Positions 31,948 to 37,455 of a DNA stretch of 64,000 bases are shown here, piece by piece. The DNA lies in NCBI GenBank assembly GCA_039944855.1, contig JBDUXZ010000020.1, positions 1-64,000 on the forward strand. Reading direction: 5' to 3'. Numbering within the stretch: the first letter of the stretch is position 1; each line of letters starts with the position of its first letter. This stretch comes from Rhodothermales bacterium. GTDB taxonomy: Bacteria > Bacteroidota > Rhodothermia > Rhodothermales > JANQRZ01. The position numbers and the translations under genes are program-made. The notes beneath the pieces are model-generated. The model was not told the DNA's origin. It did not search any database and was given only the letters and a program-made list of their open reading frames with translations.

Positions 31948-32505
31948 ATGATTTCCCCCTCAACAGAAACTACCGCGCTCCTTTCGGCCGCCCGCAATGG
32001 AAGACCGCGTGCAGCCGACCTCCTGTTCGAGCGGGTGTACAACGAGCTGCGGCGGCTCGCCCAGAAGCGCATCGCGGCCGACTCACCCATGGTGACGATC
32101 TCCGCCACCGAGCTCGTGCACGAGGCCTACCTCAAGCTCGTTGACGGAAAGGATTGGGAGGACCGGGCGCACTTCATGACGATCGCGGCCCGAGCCATGC
32201 GTCAGATCCTGACCGACCGCGCGCGGGCGCGGAGCGCGCACAAGCGGGGGGGCAGCGCGCGTGCGATCACGCTTCAGGACGATCTCGTCGGCACCGCCGG
32301 GGACGTCCATGAGCAGATCCTGAATGTGGATGCCGCACTCGACCGCCTAGCGGGGCGGAGTGAGGACCTGGCCCGGCTCGTCGAACTCCGCTTCTTCGGC
32401 GGCCTCGGCGTCGGCGAGGCCGCCGAAGTGCTGGGGGTCTCGCCCCGGACGGCCGCCCGTCAGTGGGCCCGCGCCAAGGCGCACCTCCGCGCTGAACTCG
32501 CTTAG
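31948..32505 (+). CDS. ECF-type sigma factor (TIGR02999-like)
   Basis: 185 residues. Region 2 with YNELRRLAQKRIA and TELVHEAYLKLVDGKDWEDR, the latter being the mark of the TIGR02999 group, then ARAMRQILTDRARARSA, and region 4 ELRFFGGLGVGEAAEVLGVS plus RTAARQWARAKAHL for -35 recognition. Such sigma factors are often paired with Ser/Thr kinases in place of anti-sigma factors. The kinase gene follows 36 nt later. A paralogous pair is at 46302-49788. Confidence 0.92.
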   Translation: MISPSTETTALLSAARNGRPRAADLLFERVYNELRRLAQKRIAADSPMVTISATELVHEAYLKLVDGKDWEDRAHFMTIAARAMRQILTDRARARSAHKRGGSARAITLQDDLVGTAGDVHEQILNVDAALDRLAGRSEDLARLVELRFFGGLGVGEAAEVLGVSPRTAARQWARAKAHLRAELA

Positions 32506-32541
32506 CTGAACTCGCTCAACAGCCCCACCTCCCTCAGCCCT

Positions 32542-35010
32542 GTGCCCCCATCCCTCGACTGGAGCGCGCTCGATACAGCGCTCGACCGTGCTCTCGATCT
32601 TGAGGGGGAGGAGCGCGCCGCCTTCCTGGCCTCGCTCGACGCGGCCACGCGCGTCGCCCTGGAGCCGCTCCTCCGTGACGCCCTCGCTGACGACCCGCTC
32701 CTCGACCACCCCGATTCCGTCCTGAACATGCTGGCGGACGACGAGGCCGATACGTCGTTGGAGGAGGGCGAGCGCGTCGGGCCGTACCTGCTCACGGGCC
32801 TCGTCGGCGAGGGCGGCATGGGCCGCGTCTTCCGCGCCCACCGAGCCGACGGGGTGTTCGACCAGACCGTCGCGGTCAAGGTGGTACGCGCATCGCTTAC
32901 GCTCGCCGGGACCGACGTGGCGGCCCGGCTCCGCCGCGAACGCGCCGTCCTCGCCACGCTCGACCATCCGGGCATCGCCCGCCTCCTCGACGGGGGCCAG
33001 ACGGACGACGGCGTGCCCTACCTCGTCACCGAGTTCGTCGACGGCGCGCCCATCACGACGTGGGCCGCCGAGCGCGCGCTCGACGTGAAGGCCTGCGTCC
33101 GGCTGCTGATCGAGGTGGCCCGGGCCATCGACCACGCCCACCGGCGCTTCGTCGTCCACCGCGACCTCAAGCCCTCGAACGTGCTCGTGACCGAGCGCGA
33201 CGGCACGCCCCGCCCGGTCGTGCTCGACTTCGGGATTGCCAAGCTGCTCGCCGAGGCTGAGGACGAGGACGCCCACGGATTCCCGCTTACCCGGACCGGG
33301 ATGCGCTTGATGACGCCCGCCTACGCTGCGCCCGAGCTCTTCGAGCCGGCCGCCACGGTGACTACGGCGGCCGACGTGTACGGCCTCGGCGCGCTGCTCT
33401 ACGAGTTGCTTTCGGGCCGCCGCCCCCACGACGACGCGGGAACCTCGGGCCCGCCGACGACGGAGGCGACCCGGCCTTCGAAGGCGGTCCTGCTGCCGGC
33501 GACCACGACGGGGCTCGACACGTCGCACCGCGCGCGGGCGCTTCAGGGCGATCTCGACACGATCTGCCTGAAGGCGCTCCACCGCGACCCGACGCGGCGC
33601 TACGCCTCAGCCTCAGCCCTCGCCGACGACCTGACCCGCTTCCTCGATGGACGGCCCGTCGAGGCGCGGCCGGATTCGGTGTGGTACGTGGCCGGGCGAT
33701 TTGCGCGGCGGCACCGGGCCACGGTGCTGGCCGCGACCGTGGCGCTGTTCGCGCTCGTAAGCGGGCTCGGTTTTTCGCTCGTCGCGCTGGGCAGTGAACG
33801 GGAAGCCCGGGCCGAGGCCGAGGCCTCGGCCGCTCGCGCCGATGCGGCGGCTCAGCTCCTGGGCGGTTTCTTCGCCGCCGCCGATCCCGAGCCGCTACGG
33901 GGGCGCCCCTTGACCGCCCGCGAGGCGCTCGATCAGGGCGTCGCCCGCGTTGGCGAGGTGGAGTCCGATGTGCTCCGGGCCTACCTCCTCCGCATCCTCG
34001 GCGAGACCTACGTCCAGATCGGCGACCCCGTCCTGGCCGACTCCCTCCTCCAGGCATCGCTCGGGCTCCAAGGCGAGCGGGCAACCGGCGAAGAGGTCAC
34101 ACACACCCGCCTCCTGCTCGCCGCCACCCGCGACGCCCTCGACGATCCCGAGACGGCCCTCGCCTTGGGAGAGCGTGTAGTGCAGGATCACCAGAACGAC
34201 CCCGACCCCGACCTCGCAGCCTGGGGGCTGTGGGTCGTCGCCCGGGCCCGCATACGCCTCGGCCAGTTCGACCTGGCCCTGCAGACGGCCGAGCGCGCCG
34301 AACGGCAGACGCGCCGTGGAGCGAAGGCGGAGCGCCGGGCTTCCATACTCCGGCTCCTCGGCGAGACGTATACGGAGGCTGGGCGTCCCCAAGAGGCCCT
34401 CCCTATCCTCGAGAAAGCCTTCGCGTTGTCTAGGGACGAGCACGGGCTTGAGAGTGTCCCCACGGCAAGTGCCCGTCTGCTCCTCGCGAAGGCGAAGATG
34501 GGCGTCGGGGCCTTCCGGGAGGCCGAAGCCCTGCTCCGGGAGAGCCAGGCGTACCAGGTTCGAGTATTTGGGAGCGAGACCGTCGGCTACGTGCTGGCGA
34601 ACATCGCCGAGGCCCGCTTTGGAGCAGGGGACTACTGGGGAGCCGCCGCCGTGTTGGATTCGGCCGTTACCATGATGGAGCCCCGACTGCCGCCCAACCA
34701 CCGCGACATCGGGGGGTGGTTGACGCGCCAAGCGACGGCTCTCCACCGAGTCGGCGCCTACCGTGAGGCGGAGGGGGCGGCCCGGCGGGCCGTGCGGATT
34801 GCAGAAGCCCAGACGGGGCACCCGGTTGAACTAGGGGAGTCGTTGCGCCAGCTCGGCCTCGCACTGAGCGAGCAGGGGCGGAGCAGCGAAGCGGGACCCG
34901 TTCTCCGACGCGCCCTGGCGGCGTTCGAGTCGCCCGAGGCGCAGGCGGCGCTCGATGCCGAGGAGGTCGAGGCGGTGCGCACAGCGCTGGCGGCGCTGAC
35001 CGAGGAGTGA
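32542..35010 (+). CDS. Transmembrane Ser/Thr protein kinase with TPR domain
   Basis: 822 residues from GTG at 32542. Kinase domain (about 77-370): GEGGMGRVFRAH glycine loop, VAVKVV with the ATP lysine, VVHRDLKPSNV catalytic loop near residue 207, DFGIAK, and APELF. One membrane segment at about 391-416, then an outward C-terminal region of tetratricopeptide repeats (about 440-810), including ALETAxR-like and EAExLLRESQ units. Pairs with the sigma factor just upstream and likely controls it or its targets by phosphorylation; the TPR part probably senses a ligand or partner outside. Confidence 0.93.
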   Translation: MPPSLDWSALDTALDRALDLEGEERAAFLASLDAATRVALEPLLRDALADDPLLDHPDSVLNMLADDEADTSLEEGERVGPYLLTGLVGEGGMGRVFRAHRADGVFDQTVAVKVVRASLTLAGTDVAARLRRERAVLATLDHPGIARLLDGGQTDDGVPYLVTEFVDGAPITTWAAERALDVKACVRLLIEVARAIDHAHRRFVVHRDLKPSNVLVTERDGTPRPVVLDFGIAKLLAEAEDEDAHGFPLTRTGMRLMTPAYAAPELFEPAATVTTAADVYGLGALLYELLSGRRPHDDAGTSGPPTTEATRPSKAVLLPATTTGLDTSHRARALQGDLDTICLKALHRDPTRRYASASALADDLTRFLDGRPVEARPDSVWYVAGRFARRHRATVLAATVALFALVSGLGFSLVALGSEREARAEAEASAARADAAAQLLGGFFAAADPEPLRGRPLTAREALDQGVARVGEVESDVLRAYLLRILGETYVQIGDPVLADSLLQASLGLQGERATGEEVTHTRLLLAATRDALDDPETALALGERVVQDHQNDPDPDLAAWGLWVVARARIRLGQFDLALQTAERAERQTRRGAKAERRASILRLLGETYTEAGRPQEALPILEKAFALSRDEHGLESVPTASARLLLAKAKMGVGAFREAEALLRESQAYQVRVFGSETVGYVLANIAEARFGAGDYWGAAAVLDSAVTMMEPRLPPNHRDIGGWLTRQATALHRVGAYREAEGAARRAVRIAEAQTGHPVELGESLRQLGLALSEQGRSSEAGPVLRRALAAFESPEAQAALDAEEVEAVRTALAALTEE

Positions 35011-35044: not shown

Positions 35045-35074
35045 GCGGGGGCCGAGCCGAAGCCCAGCCCCCGC
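35045..35074. terminator. UUCG-loop hairpin, copy 1
   Basis: On the minus strand a 13 bp stem (two G-U pairs) closes on a UUCG tetraloop: GCGGGGGCTGGGC, TTCG, GCTCGGCCCCCGC. It lies 94 nt beyond the stop of the acidic lipoprotein gene and 34 nt beyond the kinase stop. It shares 19 identical bases, GGGGGCCGAGCCGAAGCCC in plus-strand reading, with the hairpin at 35903. No T-run, so the role may be mRNA protection as well as termination. Confidence 0.7.
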
Positions 35075-35167
35075 AGAGGTCTCCCGCACGGTAACCCACC
35101 ACGAATCTCCGCCGGGGATGAGCGAGCCGAGGAGAAATCGGCCCGCTGGACGCACCACGCACTGGGT

Positions 35168-35680
35168 CTAGTTTGCCTCGGCGATGGTGACGGTGTAGTC
35201 GCCGCGTCCACCTTCACTACCGCCAGCGATGATCTGGTAGAGCCCGGGCCCCACGCGAGCGGTGAACGTCGCGGTTCGGTCCTGATCGTCGTCCGGGGAA
35301 GCCACCGCGAGTTCGGCGCTCTCGGAGTTGAGGATGATCTCGGGGGCGAACGCCTCCGACGTCATCGTAACGCGGACGGTGGTCGCACCTGTCGCCTTGA
35401 AGAAGTGCAGGTCGGAACGCGAAGCCCCGTTGTTGAAGTCGTACTGGCAGTCGTCGTCCGTGATCGTCCCCGAACTGGACCCCGAATTGGAGTACAGGAT
35501 GACCTCGCAACTGCTCGCCCCTGTAAACGACGACGCGGCGATCTCATCGGCCGTCGGCGTCAGGAGGCTCGTTCCCGTTTCATCGGAGTCGCTGCTGTCG
35601 CACGCCGGGAGGACGAGCACGAGCGCCGCCATGGCAATCATGCGTAGCTGGTGGATCGTAGGTAGTGTTTTACAAATCAT
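35168..35680 (-). CDS. Small acidic secreted lipoprotein
   Basis: 170 residues from ATG at 35680 (MICKTLPTIHQLRMIAMAAL; an alternative ATG at 35641 would shorten the n-region). Lipobox VLPAC, Ser/Asp linker, and a mature part of about 120 residues with two cysteines (SSCEVILYS; DDCQYDF) and beta-strand character (ATTVRVTMTSEAF, TFTARVGPGLYQIIAGG). The GGRGDYTVTI end is like a bacterial pre-peptidase C-terminal (PPC) or similar small beta domain, but this is not certain. Framed by the same 5' element and 3' hairpin as the lectin gene. Confidence 0.65.
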   Translation of the reverse strand: MICKTLPTIHQLRMIAMAALVLVLPACDSSDSDETGTSLLTPTADEIAASSFTGASSCEVILYSNSGSSSGTITDDDCQYDFNNGASRSDLHFFKATGATTVRVTMTSEAFAPEIILNSESAELAVASPDDDQDRTATFTARVGPGLYQIIAGGSEGGRGDYTVTIAEAN

Positions 35681-35766
35681 GACGTAGGGTGGAGGGGAAG
35701 GCTGGAGTCGGTTGAGGAGCCCACGACGCCCGGACAGCGGCCCGGGCCGCAGGGCTCTACCCCAAC

Positions 35767-35832
35767 AGCGAGATTCCGCGCGGCCGACTGCCACGGCCGG
35801 CTGATTTTTTCTCGACCGTGCGACCGCTCACG
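35767..35832 (-). promoter_or_regulatory. Shared upstream element, copy B
   Basis: 66 nt upstream of the acidic lipoprotein gene, nearly the same as 37180-37234. Identical blocks, in plus-strand reading, are AGCGAGATTCCGCGC, GGCTGATTTTTT and GCGACC-x-CTCACG. On the coding (minus) strand it reads CGTGAG...AAAAAATCAGCC...GCGCGGAATCTCGCT and its near end is 86 nt from the ATG. Likely a promoter or regulatory site. Confidence 0.7.
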
Positions 35833-35902
35833 GCATGTCCGACGACCGGGACCCGATGACGGCGTGGCCCTCCGTGTCATGGCTCCAGTTGAACCAACGA
35901 AC

Positions 35903-35930
35903 GGGGGGCCGAGCCGAAGCCCGGCCCCCC
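35903..35930 (-). terminator. UUCG-loop hairpin, copy 2
   Basis: A 12 bp stem with one G-U pair on a UUCG tetraloop, minus strand GGGGGGCCGGGC, TTCG, GCTCGGCCCCCC. It lies 35 nt beyond the stop of the lectin gene. Closely matches the hairpin at 35045. Confidence 0.7.
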
Positions 35931-35965
35931 TTATCCACGGAGGAGATTCCGGAAGGCACCGCGAC

Positions 35966-37072
35966 CTAGTAGTCGGACGCGGCCTCGCTAATCGGTCCGT
36001 GCGCGTCGAAGCGCCATAGTTGCCCCGTCACGTTCTGGCAGTCGTCCATAAAGGCCGTCCCCCCCATTTGGTCAGATCCCCGACCGTTGGCCTCGAGACA
36101 CTCGTTCTCGCCCCGGAACATGGACTTCAGGCGATAGAACCCGTTGTCGGCCGACTCAACCTTCCACAGCTGTCCTGATACGTTCTGGCAGTCGTCCATA
36201 TAGGCCGAGCCACCCATGTAGTCGGATTCCCTGCTGTTGCTCTCGAAGCACTCGCCCTCGCCGCGCTCGCTGCTCTTGAGGCGGTAATAGCCGTTTCCGG
36301 CGTCCTGGACCTGCCACAGTTGCCCCGTCTGGCTGCGGCAGGGCGTCATGACAGCGTTGCCGCCGAACTGACCACCGCGACCGTTGCTCTCCAGGCACTC
36401 GGCGTCCTCGTGAGACATGGACTTGAGGAGGTACCACGTGCCGGGGGTCGGTGCGCTCTCGGTAGGCGTGCCCTCGTTGGCCGCGATCTCGCTGCCGCCC
36501 GCGCCGGGTACAGATCGTACCTGTGCGCTCAGGCCATTGCCGGCCCCGCACACGTCGGCGAGCGTGATGACGATGCGGTTGACGTCGTCGGACTTGAGGT
36601 AGGGCGAGAGGTCCACCGTCTTGCTCTCTCGGAGACCAACGAGGTCGGGGACGTTCACCCCGTTGTTGATGCCCTCTTCCCCGGCGAAGACGGTGACGCG
36701 CGCGGCATCGTCCACATTCGTGAAGTCGATCGCGAACCCTTCGTCGGGACCGGGGAGCACGAACGTCTCGAAATAGGTGTAGTTGGCTTGCGCGCGGCAG
36801 GGCGTTCCGCCCGGGCCGCTCCAGCGGAGGGATTGATCGTTAGACACGTTCGACCACCCGCTATCATTCGAGGCGGGAATCTGCGACCCGCTCAAGAACC
36901 CTTCGGTGTCACCATTGGGGATAACCGTGCCGAAGTTGTGGCGGGCAGCGGTTCCTTCATGCACTTGCCAGCCCCCGCTCTGGGCGGTCGCGGTGGCCGC
37001 AGCGAGCAGGCCGACGCCGAGGCAGCTCACGACGAGGAGAGCCCTGACGAGGGAGTAGGTTGTATTGATCAT
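35966..37072 (-). CDS. Secreted RICIN-type (QxW) lectin-like protein
   Basis: 368 residues from ATG at 37072. Signal peptide ending AAATATAQ. Residues about 32-185 look like a beta-sandwich (FETFVLPGPDEGFAIDFTNV, VTVFAGEEGINNG), and about 205-368 hold three repeats of roughly 50 residues, each with a cysteine pair, a GGxAxMxxC step and the QLW of a QxW beta-trefoil lectin (near 250, 300 and 350), as in GYYRLKSSERGEGECFESNS. It is a secreted carbohydrate-binding candidate. Framed by the shared 5' element and 3' hairpin. Confidence 0.8.
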   Translation of the reverse strand: MINTTYSLVRALLVVSCLGVGLLAAATATAQSGGWQVHEGTAARHNFGTVIPNGDTEGFLSGSQIPASNDSGWSNVSNDQSLRWSGPGGTPCRAQANYTYFETFVLPGPDEGFAIDFTNVDDAARVTVFAGEEGINNGVNVPDLVGLRESKTVDLSPYLKSDDVNRIVITLADVCGAGNGLSAQVRSVPGAGGSEIAANEGTPTESAPTPGTWYLLKSMSHEDAECLESNGRGGQFGGNAVMTPCRSQTGQLWQVQDAGNGYYRLKSSERGEGECFESNSRESDYMGGSAYMDDCQNVSGQLWKVESADNGFYRLKSMFRGENECLEANGRGSDQMGGTAFMDDCQNVTGQLWRFDAHGPISEAASDY

Positions 37073-37179
37073 GGTATTCTTGATGTGTGGGAATGCCTGC
37101 TTAGGCATAGGAGGTTGAGCAGGACCAGCCCAGCAGGCCAGCCGAGCATCCGCTAATAGCGTCGGGTGCTCACTCCGAT

Positions 37180-37234
37180 AGCGAGATTCCGCGCAGCTGT
37201 CTGCCATACCCGGCTGATTTTTTTCGTGCGCGCG
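37180..37234 (-). promoter_or_regulatory. Shared upstream element, copy A
   Basis: 55 nt upstream of the lectin gene, matching 35767-35832 in the same three blocks, with differing spacer bases and about 10 nt shorter. Its near end is 107 nt from the ATG. The kept blocks and order argue for selection or a recent duplication. Confidence 0.7.
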
Positions 37235-37455
37235 ACCTCTCACGCCGTGACGGCGCCGTCGAGAACGACGCTCCCCCGCCCGCACTGATCGACACCGAGA
37301 CGAGCCAGGACGGGGCACGGTACCGCGTCTACGTCACGAGGACCCGCCAGAACGCGAGGCATGCCCGAGCGCCTCGGAATCCCGGAGAGGATTGCGGAGA
37401 TCGGAAAGCGGTACACTGAGCCCATTCTATTCTTCGACCTTGTCGACGCCTCGCC

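What the first reader, a model, noticed from the sequence alone, without database searches (positions are those of the whole stretch)
35045..37234. Two unrelated secreted genes framed by the same upstream element and the same UUCG hairpin
Seen directly: 37180-37234 and 35767-35832 share AGCGAGATTCCGCGC, GGCTGATTTTTT and GCGACC-x-CTCACG in order, upstream of two minus-strand genes (a QxW lectin-like protein and an acidic lipoprotein) with no similarity to each other. Downstream of each lies a UUCG-tetraloop hairpin (35903-35930, 35045-35074) with 19 identical bases. Each gene therefore looks like a unit [element - secreted gene - hairpin]. This could be a family of exchangeable cassettes or a regulon with a common promoter and 3' stabiliser. 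The neighbouring sigma factor and kinase (31948-35010) are natural candidates for the controller, but that is inference.
Basis: partly seen in the sequence, partly recalled or inferred. Interest (0 to 1): 0.75.

Follow-up and report, generated by a model that had tools for sequence, protein, structure and literature searches.

The report
Sigma-factor promoter shared by secreted genes
Two unrelated secreted-protein genes share the same upstream stretch because, most likely, it is the promoter read by the neighbouring kinase-controlled sigma factor; the same promoter sits beside the same sigma factor in three related bacteria, next to other secreted proteins, whereas the shared hairpin is just this genome's ordinary terminator style.

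Summary
An ~80-bp element lies upstream of a ricin-B-lectin-type secreted gene and of an unrelated acidic lipoprotein gene, and both genes end in a UUCG hairpin with 19 identical bases. Nothing else aligns: coding parts, 5'UTRs and hairpin flanks are no more alike than shuffles. The element occurs only twice in the genome, so 'many exchangeable cassettes' is not supported. The N-domain of the lectin protein has homologues in two related genomes, each divergently beside the closest orthologue (65% identical) of the window's sigma factor, behind the same promoter. Two further orthologous loci also carry it. A matrix built only from the relatives ranks the two window sites first and second in 2.0 Mb of this genome; a strict consensus hits three places in 245 genomes, all beside this sigma factor. 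The sigma factor carries SATE instead of DAED in region 2.2 and is followed by a transmembrane Ser/Thr kinase, the signature of kinase-activated ECF43 factors. The hairpin core is generic here (also after a recA-like gene). Best reading: a small kinase/sigma regulon of secreted, often lectin-like proteins. No expression data exist.

The parts
37171..37253 (-). shared upstream element of the QxW gene (distal block, A-tract, promoter)
37201..37206 (-). -35 hexamer TGGCAG of the QxW gene promoter
   Evidence: 17-bp spacing to CGCT in six of seven sites
37178..37183 (-). -10 hexamer CGCTAT of the QxW gene promoter
37212..37223 (-). AAAAAATCAGCC block upstream of the -35 (UP-like A tract)
   Evidence: sequence; A/T tract at a similar place in most orthologous sites
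37232..37244 (-). distal block CGTGAG-x-GGTCGC, shared only by the two window copies; role unknown (activator site or duplication remnant)
35966..37072 (-). secreted QxW protein, 368 aa: signal peptide, conserved N-domain (about 34-190), ricin-B-type lectin repeats
   Evidence: Pfam Ricin_B_lectin E 2e-14; N-domain homologues
35903..35930 (-). UUCG hairpin after the QxW gene (U-poor terminator type)
35758..35846 (-). shared upstream element of the lipoprotein gene
35788..35793 (-). -35 hexamer TGGCAG of the lipoprotein gene promoter
35765..35770 (-). -10 hexamer CGCTGT of the lipoprotein gene promoter
35799..35810 (-). AAAAAATCAGCC block
35820..35832 (-). distal block CGTGAG-x-GGTCGC
35168..35680 (-). 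acidic lipoprotein, 170 aa, lipobox LPAC, two conserved Cys beyond it; distant homologues in 12 other genomes of the order
   Evidence: no Pfam hit
35045..35074 (-). UUCG hairpin after the lipoprotein gene, between convergent genes
31948..32505 (+). ECF-type sigma factor (TIGR02999 / Sigma70_ECF); region 2.2 reads SATE (Thr54) instead of DAED; proposed to read the two promoters
32542..35010 (+). Ser/Thr kinase, one transmembrane stretch (about 395-416), C-terminal TPR repeats; proposed activator of the sigma factor

Best explanation
The element is the target promoter of the adjacent ECF sigma factor. Its core is -35 TGGCAG(tcgg), a fixed 17-bp spacer and -10 CGCTWT(nnGG), with an A/T tract just upstream. 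The sigma factor is co-encoded with a membrane Ser/Thr kinase and lacks the acidic DAED motif of region 2.2, so it is probably inactive until the kinase phosphorylates Thr54 (SATE), as for EcfP/PknT and EcfK/PknS. A signal sensed through the kinase would then switch on a small set of secreted proteins, here the ricin-B-type lectin protein and the lipoprotein. The hairpins are ordinary terminators of this genome. Shown: promoter conservation, linkage and residue signature. Inferred: sigma binding, phosphorylation and the signal.
For: Closest sigma orthologues (63-70% identity) occur in only three other genomes of 245, at four loci. In G013 and G054 a homologue of the QxW N-domain lies divergently beside the orthologue. 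TGGCAG-N17-CGCT sites precede secreted genes at these loci: G013 exact, G054 C3 two sites with 0 and 1 mismatch, G053 weaker, G054 C4 with a perfect -35 but degenerate -10. 14 paralogous TIGR02999 loci (about 280 kb) have none with <=1 mismatch. A matrix from relatives only ranks the two window sites 1st and 2nd in 2.0 Mb of this genome. Leave-one-locus-out recovers L163 (both sites), L165 and L166 above every control. A strict consensus occurs 3 times in 245 genomes, all beside these sigma genes; the reversed pattern occurs twice. An unlinked G054 site, not used in the model, lies about 30 nt before a lipoprotein ATG. 20 of 22 aligned TIGR02999 factors, the window's included, have Thr at the third position of the region 2.2 motif. 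The phospho-switch of kinase-linked ECFs is described in PMC8999054, PMC13147305 and PMC8103513.
Against: No expression data. The relatives' sites helped to define the motif, so only the hold-out tests are independent. The QxW site deviates (ACAG for TCGG) and ranks only 5th with a shorter matrix. G054 C4 lacks a good -10 and failed leave-one-out. The two window elements are alike over about 80 bp, more than sigma contacts need, so a second regulator or recent copying also contributes. The sigma operon itself has no such site, so autoregulation is not seen. Some kinase-linked groups other than ECF43 keep acidic residues and may work differently.
Confidence: 0.75

Rival explanations
1. The two elements are remnants of a tandem duplication of one promoter-gene-terminator unit whose coding part was later replaced or diverged; no special regulation.
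For: The two window copies resemble each other over about 80 bp, including spacer and distal block, more than they resemble relatives' sites. The genes are adjacent and in the same orientation, and the hairpins share 26 bases with one mismatch.
Against: 5'UTR, coding start and hairpin flanks align no better than shuffles. The promoter core is conserved in other genera beside the same sigma factor and before different genes. This explains the origin of the pair, not the function, and can hold together with the main reading.
Confidence: 0.15
2. The element is recognised by another factor (housekeeping sigma plus an activator, e.g. an AraC/receiver-type regulator like those in the G053 and G054 loci), and the sigma factor is only a neighbour.
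For: AraC/receiver genes lie in two of the orthologous loci. A distal block and A tract upstream of the -35 are conserved in the window pair.
Against: The conserved part is a two-block promoter with constant 17-bp spacing, and it tracks the sigma orthologue, not the AraC gene, which was not seen near the window and G013 loci.
Confidence: 0.1
3. Exchangeable cassettes: mobile units of [element - secreted gene - hairpin] moved by recombination at the shared element or hairpin.
For: Different secreted genes lie between matching ends. Secreted genes behind the promoter differ between genomes and are mosaic.
Against: Only two copies in the genome; the hairpin core also occurs after a recA-like and an acyl-CoA-dehydrogenase-like gene; no flanking homology. 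No recombinase was searched for.
Confidence: 0.04

Closest known systems
ECF43 sigma factors activated by a Ser/Thr kinase (EcfP/PknT of Vibrio parahaemolyticus; EcfK/PknS of Xanthomonas citri)
   Same: Sigma2-sigma4 factor beside a transmembrane Hanks-type kinase, no anti-sigma gene seen among the adjacent genes, DAED of region 2.2 replaced (STTA in EcfP, QATE in EcfK, SATE here) with a Thr at the phosphosite (PMC8999054, PMC13147305).
   Different: Known regulons are polymyxin resistance and a type VI secretion system; here the proposed targets are secreted lectin-like proteins and lipoproteins, in a Rhodothermales-like genome, and the kinase carries TPR repeats.
Canonical ECF promoters (AAC at -35, CGT at -10; PMC8103513)
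   Same: Two short blocks with a fixed spacer, CG-starting -10, genes next to the sigma factor.
   Different: -35 is TGGCAGTCGG and -10 is CGCTWT; no sign of autoregulation of the sigma operon.
Intrinsic terminators with UUCG hairpins
   Same: Very stable GC stem with C-UUCG-G loop just after the stop codon.
   Different: No U run follows; the sequence core is a habit of this genome rather than a mark of these two genes.

Membership tests
ECF43-type kinase-activated sigma factor | ECF architecture (sigma2 and sigma4 only) | tested here: met
   185 aa, PF07638 E 1e-46, TIGR02999 186 bits against cut-off 126
ECF43-type kinase-activated sigma factor | adjacent Ser/Thr protein kinase | tested here: met
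   32542-35010, Pkinase E 4e-37, HRD/DFG/APE motifs, one TM stretch
ECF43-type kinase-activated sigma factor | DAED of region 2.2 replaced, with a Thr at the phosphosite | tested here: met
   SATE, Thr54; SATG in the closest orthologues, mostly NTTA/NSTA/STTA in paralogues
ECF43-type kinase-activated sigma factor | phylogenetic placement in ECF43 by the ECF classification models | not testable with these tools
   no ECF-group models held; the classification paper is not in the library
ECF43-type kinase-activated sigma factor | activity depends on phosphorylation by the kinase | not testable with these tools
   needs experiment
ECF target promoter | two conserved blocks at constant spacing upstream of target genes, co-occurring with the sigma factor | tested here: met
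   TGGCAG-N17-CGCT; hold-out and class-wide tests; one of seven sites (G054 C4) lacks a good -10
Recombination cassettes (integron-like) | many units with the same recombination site | tested here: not met
   two copies only; similarity confined to promoter and hairpin
Intrinsic terminator | GC-rich hairpin followed by a U run | tested here: not met
   hairpin met; downstream CGUUCGUUG and GCUUGCUAU are not U runs

The most novel reading that the evidence does not exclude
In this lineage a kinase-activated sigma factor keeps a dedicated promoter behind which unrelated or domain-shuffled secreted binding proteins (ricin-B, fascin-like, bulb-lectin-like, NHL repeats) are swapped during evolution: a fixed sensor-promoter module with a rapidly exchanged secreted output, perhaps for recognising surfaces, prey or rivals.
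Probability: 0.25. Interest if true: 0.7.

Novelty: new member of a known kind. Interest (0 to 1): 0.55.

Why it matters
Kinase-linked TIGR02999 sigma factors are expanded in this group (3 to 17 hits in the genomes counted), yet I found no paper naming a target promoter or regulon for any of them in this order. Here one factor gets a concrete promoter sequence, a target list and a phosphosite, each testable by simple experiments. If right, it also gives a recipe for the paralogues: compare sequences next to orthologous sigma-kinase pairs in related genera.

Tried and rejected
Model R1 of the two window elements over 114 genomes of the order gave only weak hits (E >= 0.003); those inspected lay mostly in coding sequence, and two lay in a dispersed repeat of G079. 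A sigma-54 reading of TGGCAG...GC was dropped because the GG-GC spacing is one base short (inspection). Integron-like attC sites: no support. Hairpin as regulon mark: rejected, generic core. Structures of the lipoprotein and of the QxW N-domain without alignments had low confidence (pLDDT 54 and 43), so no fold search was made. No homologous solved structure for the sigma factor by phmmer. Alignments with relatives were not sent to structure prediction because its stated rule does not list those loci.

Full report
What is there. On the minus strand, downstream of a convergent sigma factor/kinase pair (31948-35010, +), lie two secreted genes: a lipoprotein (35168-35680) and a 368-aa protein with ricin-B-type lectin repeats (35966-37072). 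Both repeats are real and beyond chance. The proteins are unrelated.

How far the similarity goes. Segment by segment, the two loci align strongly only over the distal block, A tract and promoter, and over the 26-nt hairpin. The 5'UTRs, the first 120 nt of the genes, the stop-to-hairpin stretch and the sequence after the hairpin are no better than shuffles. A model of the element finds only these two copies in the 4.6-Mb genome and no convincing one in 114 genomes of the order (inspected hits are mostly in genes, or in a dispersed repeat).

The hairpin. GGGCTTCGGCTC occurs 8 times in the genome. In 2.0 Mb, 4 of 11 strong UUCG hairpins carry it; the other two follow a recA-like gene and lie between a convergent oxidoreductase-like and an acyl-CoA-dehydrogenase-like gene (gene names read from sequence). 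It is a terminator habit of this genome, not a mark of these genes. It lacks a U run.

The lead to the promoter. The N-terminal domain of the lectin protein (about residues 34-190) has homologues in only a few genomes of the order. The two clear ones, in G013 and G054 (E 2e-15 and 2e-14), are each encoded divergently next to the closest orthologue of the window's sigma factor (65% identity). Their upstream regions share GTGGCAGTCGG with the window element. Two more orthologous loci (G054 C3, 70%; G053, 63%) have it as well: G054 C3 before an AraC/receiver regulator and before a Vgb/NHL-repeat protein with a type IX sorting tail, and G053, weaker, before a fascin-like secreted protein.

Tests. 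(1) Controls: fourteen loci of paralogous sigma factors of the same TIGR02999 family contain no site with one mismatch or less. (2) Hold-out: a matrix built from relatives only ranks the two window sites 1st and 2nd in 2.0 Mb, scores 23.5 and 18.3 against 16.5 for the next (first done on 1.2 Mb, where a shorter matrix ranked the QxW site only 5th). (3) Leave-one-locus-out recovers L163 (both sites), L165 and L166 above all controls; L164 fails because its -10 is degenerate. (4) Class-wide: the strict consensus TGGCAGTCG-N14-CGCTWNNGG occurs at three places in 245 genomes, all beside these sigma genes, against two for the reversed pattern. That pattern was written from these sites, so the informative part is that nothing else matches. 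(5) A model search finds a new, unlinked site in G054 about 100 kb from the sigma gene, about 30 nt before a lipoprotein ATG.

The regulator. The sigma factor is TIGR02999. Canonical ECF factors carry DAED in region 2.2; kinase-activated ECF43 factors carry STTA (EcfP) or QATE (EcfK), and phosphorylation of the Thr restores the charge needed to bind RNA polymerase (PMC8999054, PMC8103513, PMC13147305). The window's factor has SATE (Thr54), its closest orthologues SATG, most paralogues NTTA, NSTA or STTA; two paralogues read DTAA. The kinase has an intact catalytic core, one transmembrane stretch and C-terminal TPR repeats. This fits a membrane kinase that switches the sigma factor on. One caution from the literature: the T51A variant of EcfK still complements, so other phosphosites may matter (PMC13147305).

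What the targets have in common. Products behind the promoter are mostly exported and built of binding-type or repeat domains: ricin-B repeats; the shared N-domain with VWD and weak bulb-lectin similarity; fascin-like; Vgb/NHL repeats; lipoproteins. The lectin half of the window protein is closest, among the genomes scanned, to proteins of alphaproteobacteria and cyanobacteria (42-44% identity), while clear N-domain homologues were found only in this order, so the protein is a mosaic.

Verdict. A real feature, best read as a small ECF sigma/kinase regulon with a newly recognised promoter; the hairpin part is ordinary. Origin of the window pair by copying of the promoter region is likely as well, since the two elements are more alike than the promoter requires.

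Noticed in passing
L163:10017-10964 (G054) and L166:9932-10882 (G053): A receiver-AraC type regulator gene sits divergently beside the sigma/kinase pair in two orthologous loci; in G054 it carries the promoter itself. It was not seen near the window and G013 loci.
   Followed up: partly
window 37171-37253 and 35758-35846, distal 35 bp: The block CGTGAG-x-GGTCGC-CG-CGA-AAAAAATCAGCCGG is almost identical in the two window copies but not in relatives; possibly a second regulator's site or recent copying.
   Followed up: partly
G001, G002, G013, G054, G012: TIGR02999 sigma factors are expanded in most relatives: 16, 11, 10, 17 and 3 hits per genome, nearly all with a Thr in place of the acidic region 2.2 motif.
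   Followed up: partly
L032 and L038 (G079), around 1201-1600: A dispersed repeat with GTCATTGCGAG...CTCGCAATGAC ends and repeated AGGTCAT(C/G)CC units flanks unrelated genes.
   Followed up: no
window 35966-36450 (-): The ricin-B half of the QxW protein is closest to proteins of Antarctobacter, Mesorhizobium and Leptolyngbya-type cyanobacteria, whereas clear N-domain homologues were found only in this order: a mosaic, perhaps with horizontal transfer of the lectin part.
   Followed up: partly
L092:10644-10681 and L116:8923-8952 (own genome C24:230644 and C2:108923): Strong hairpins with the same GGGCTTCGGCTC core after a recA-like gene and between convergent oxidoreductase-like and acyl-CoA-dehydrogenase-like genes.
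   Followed up: yes
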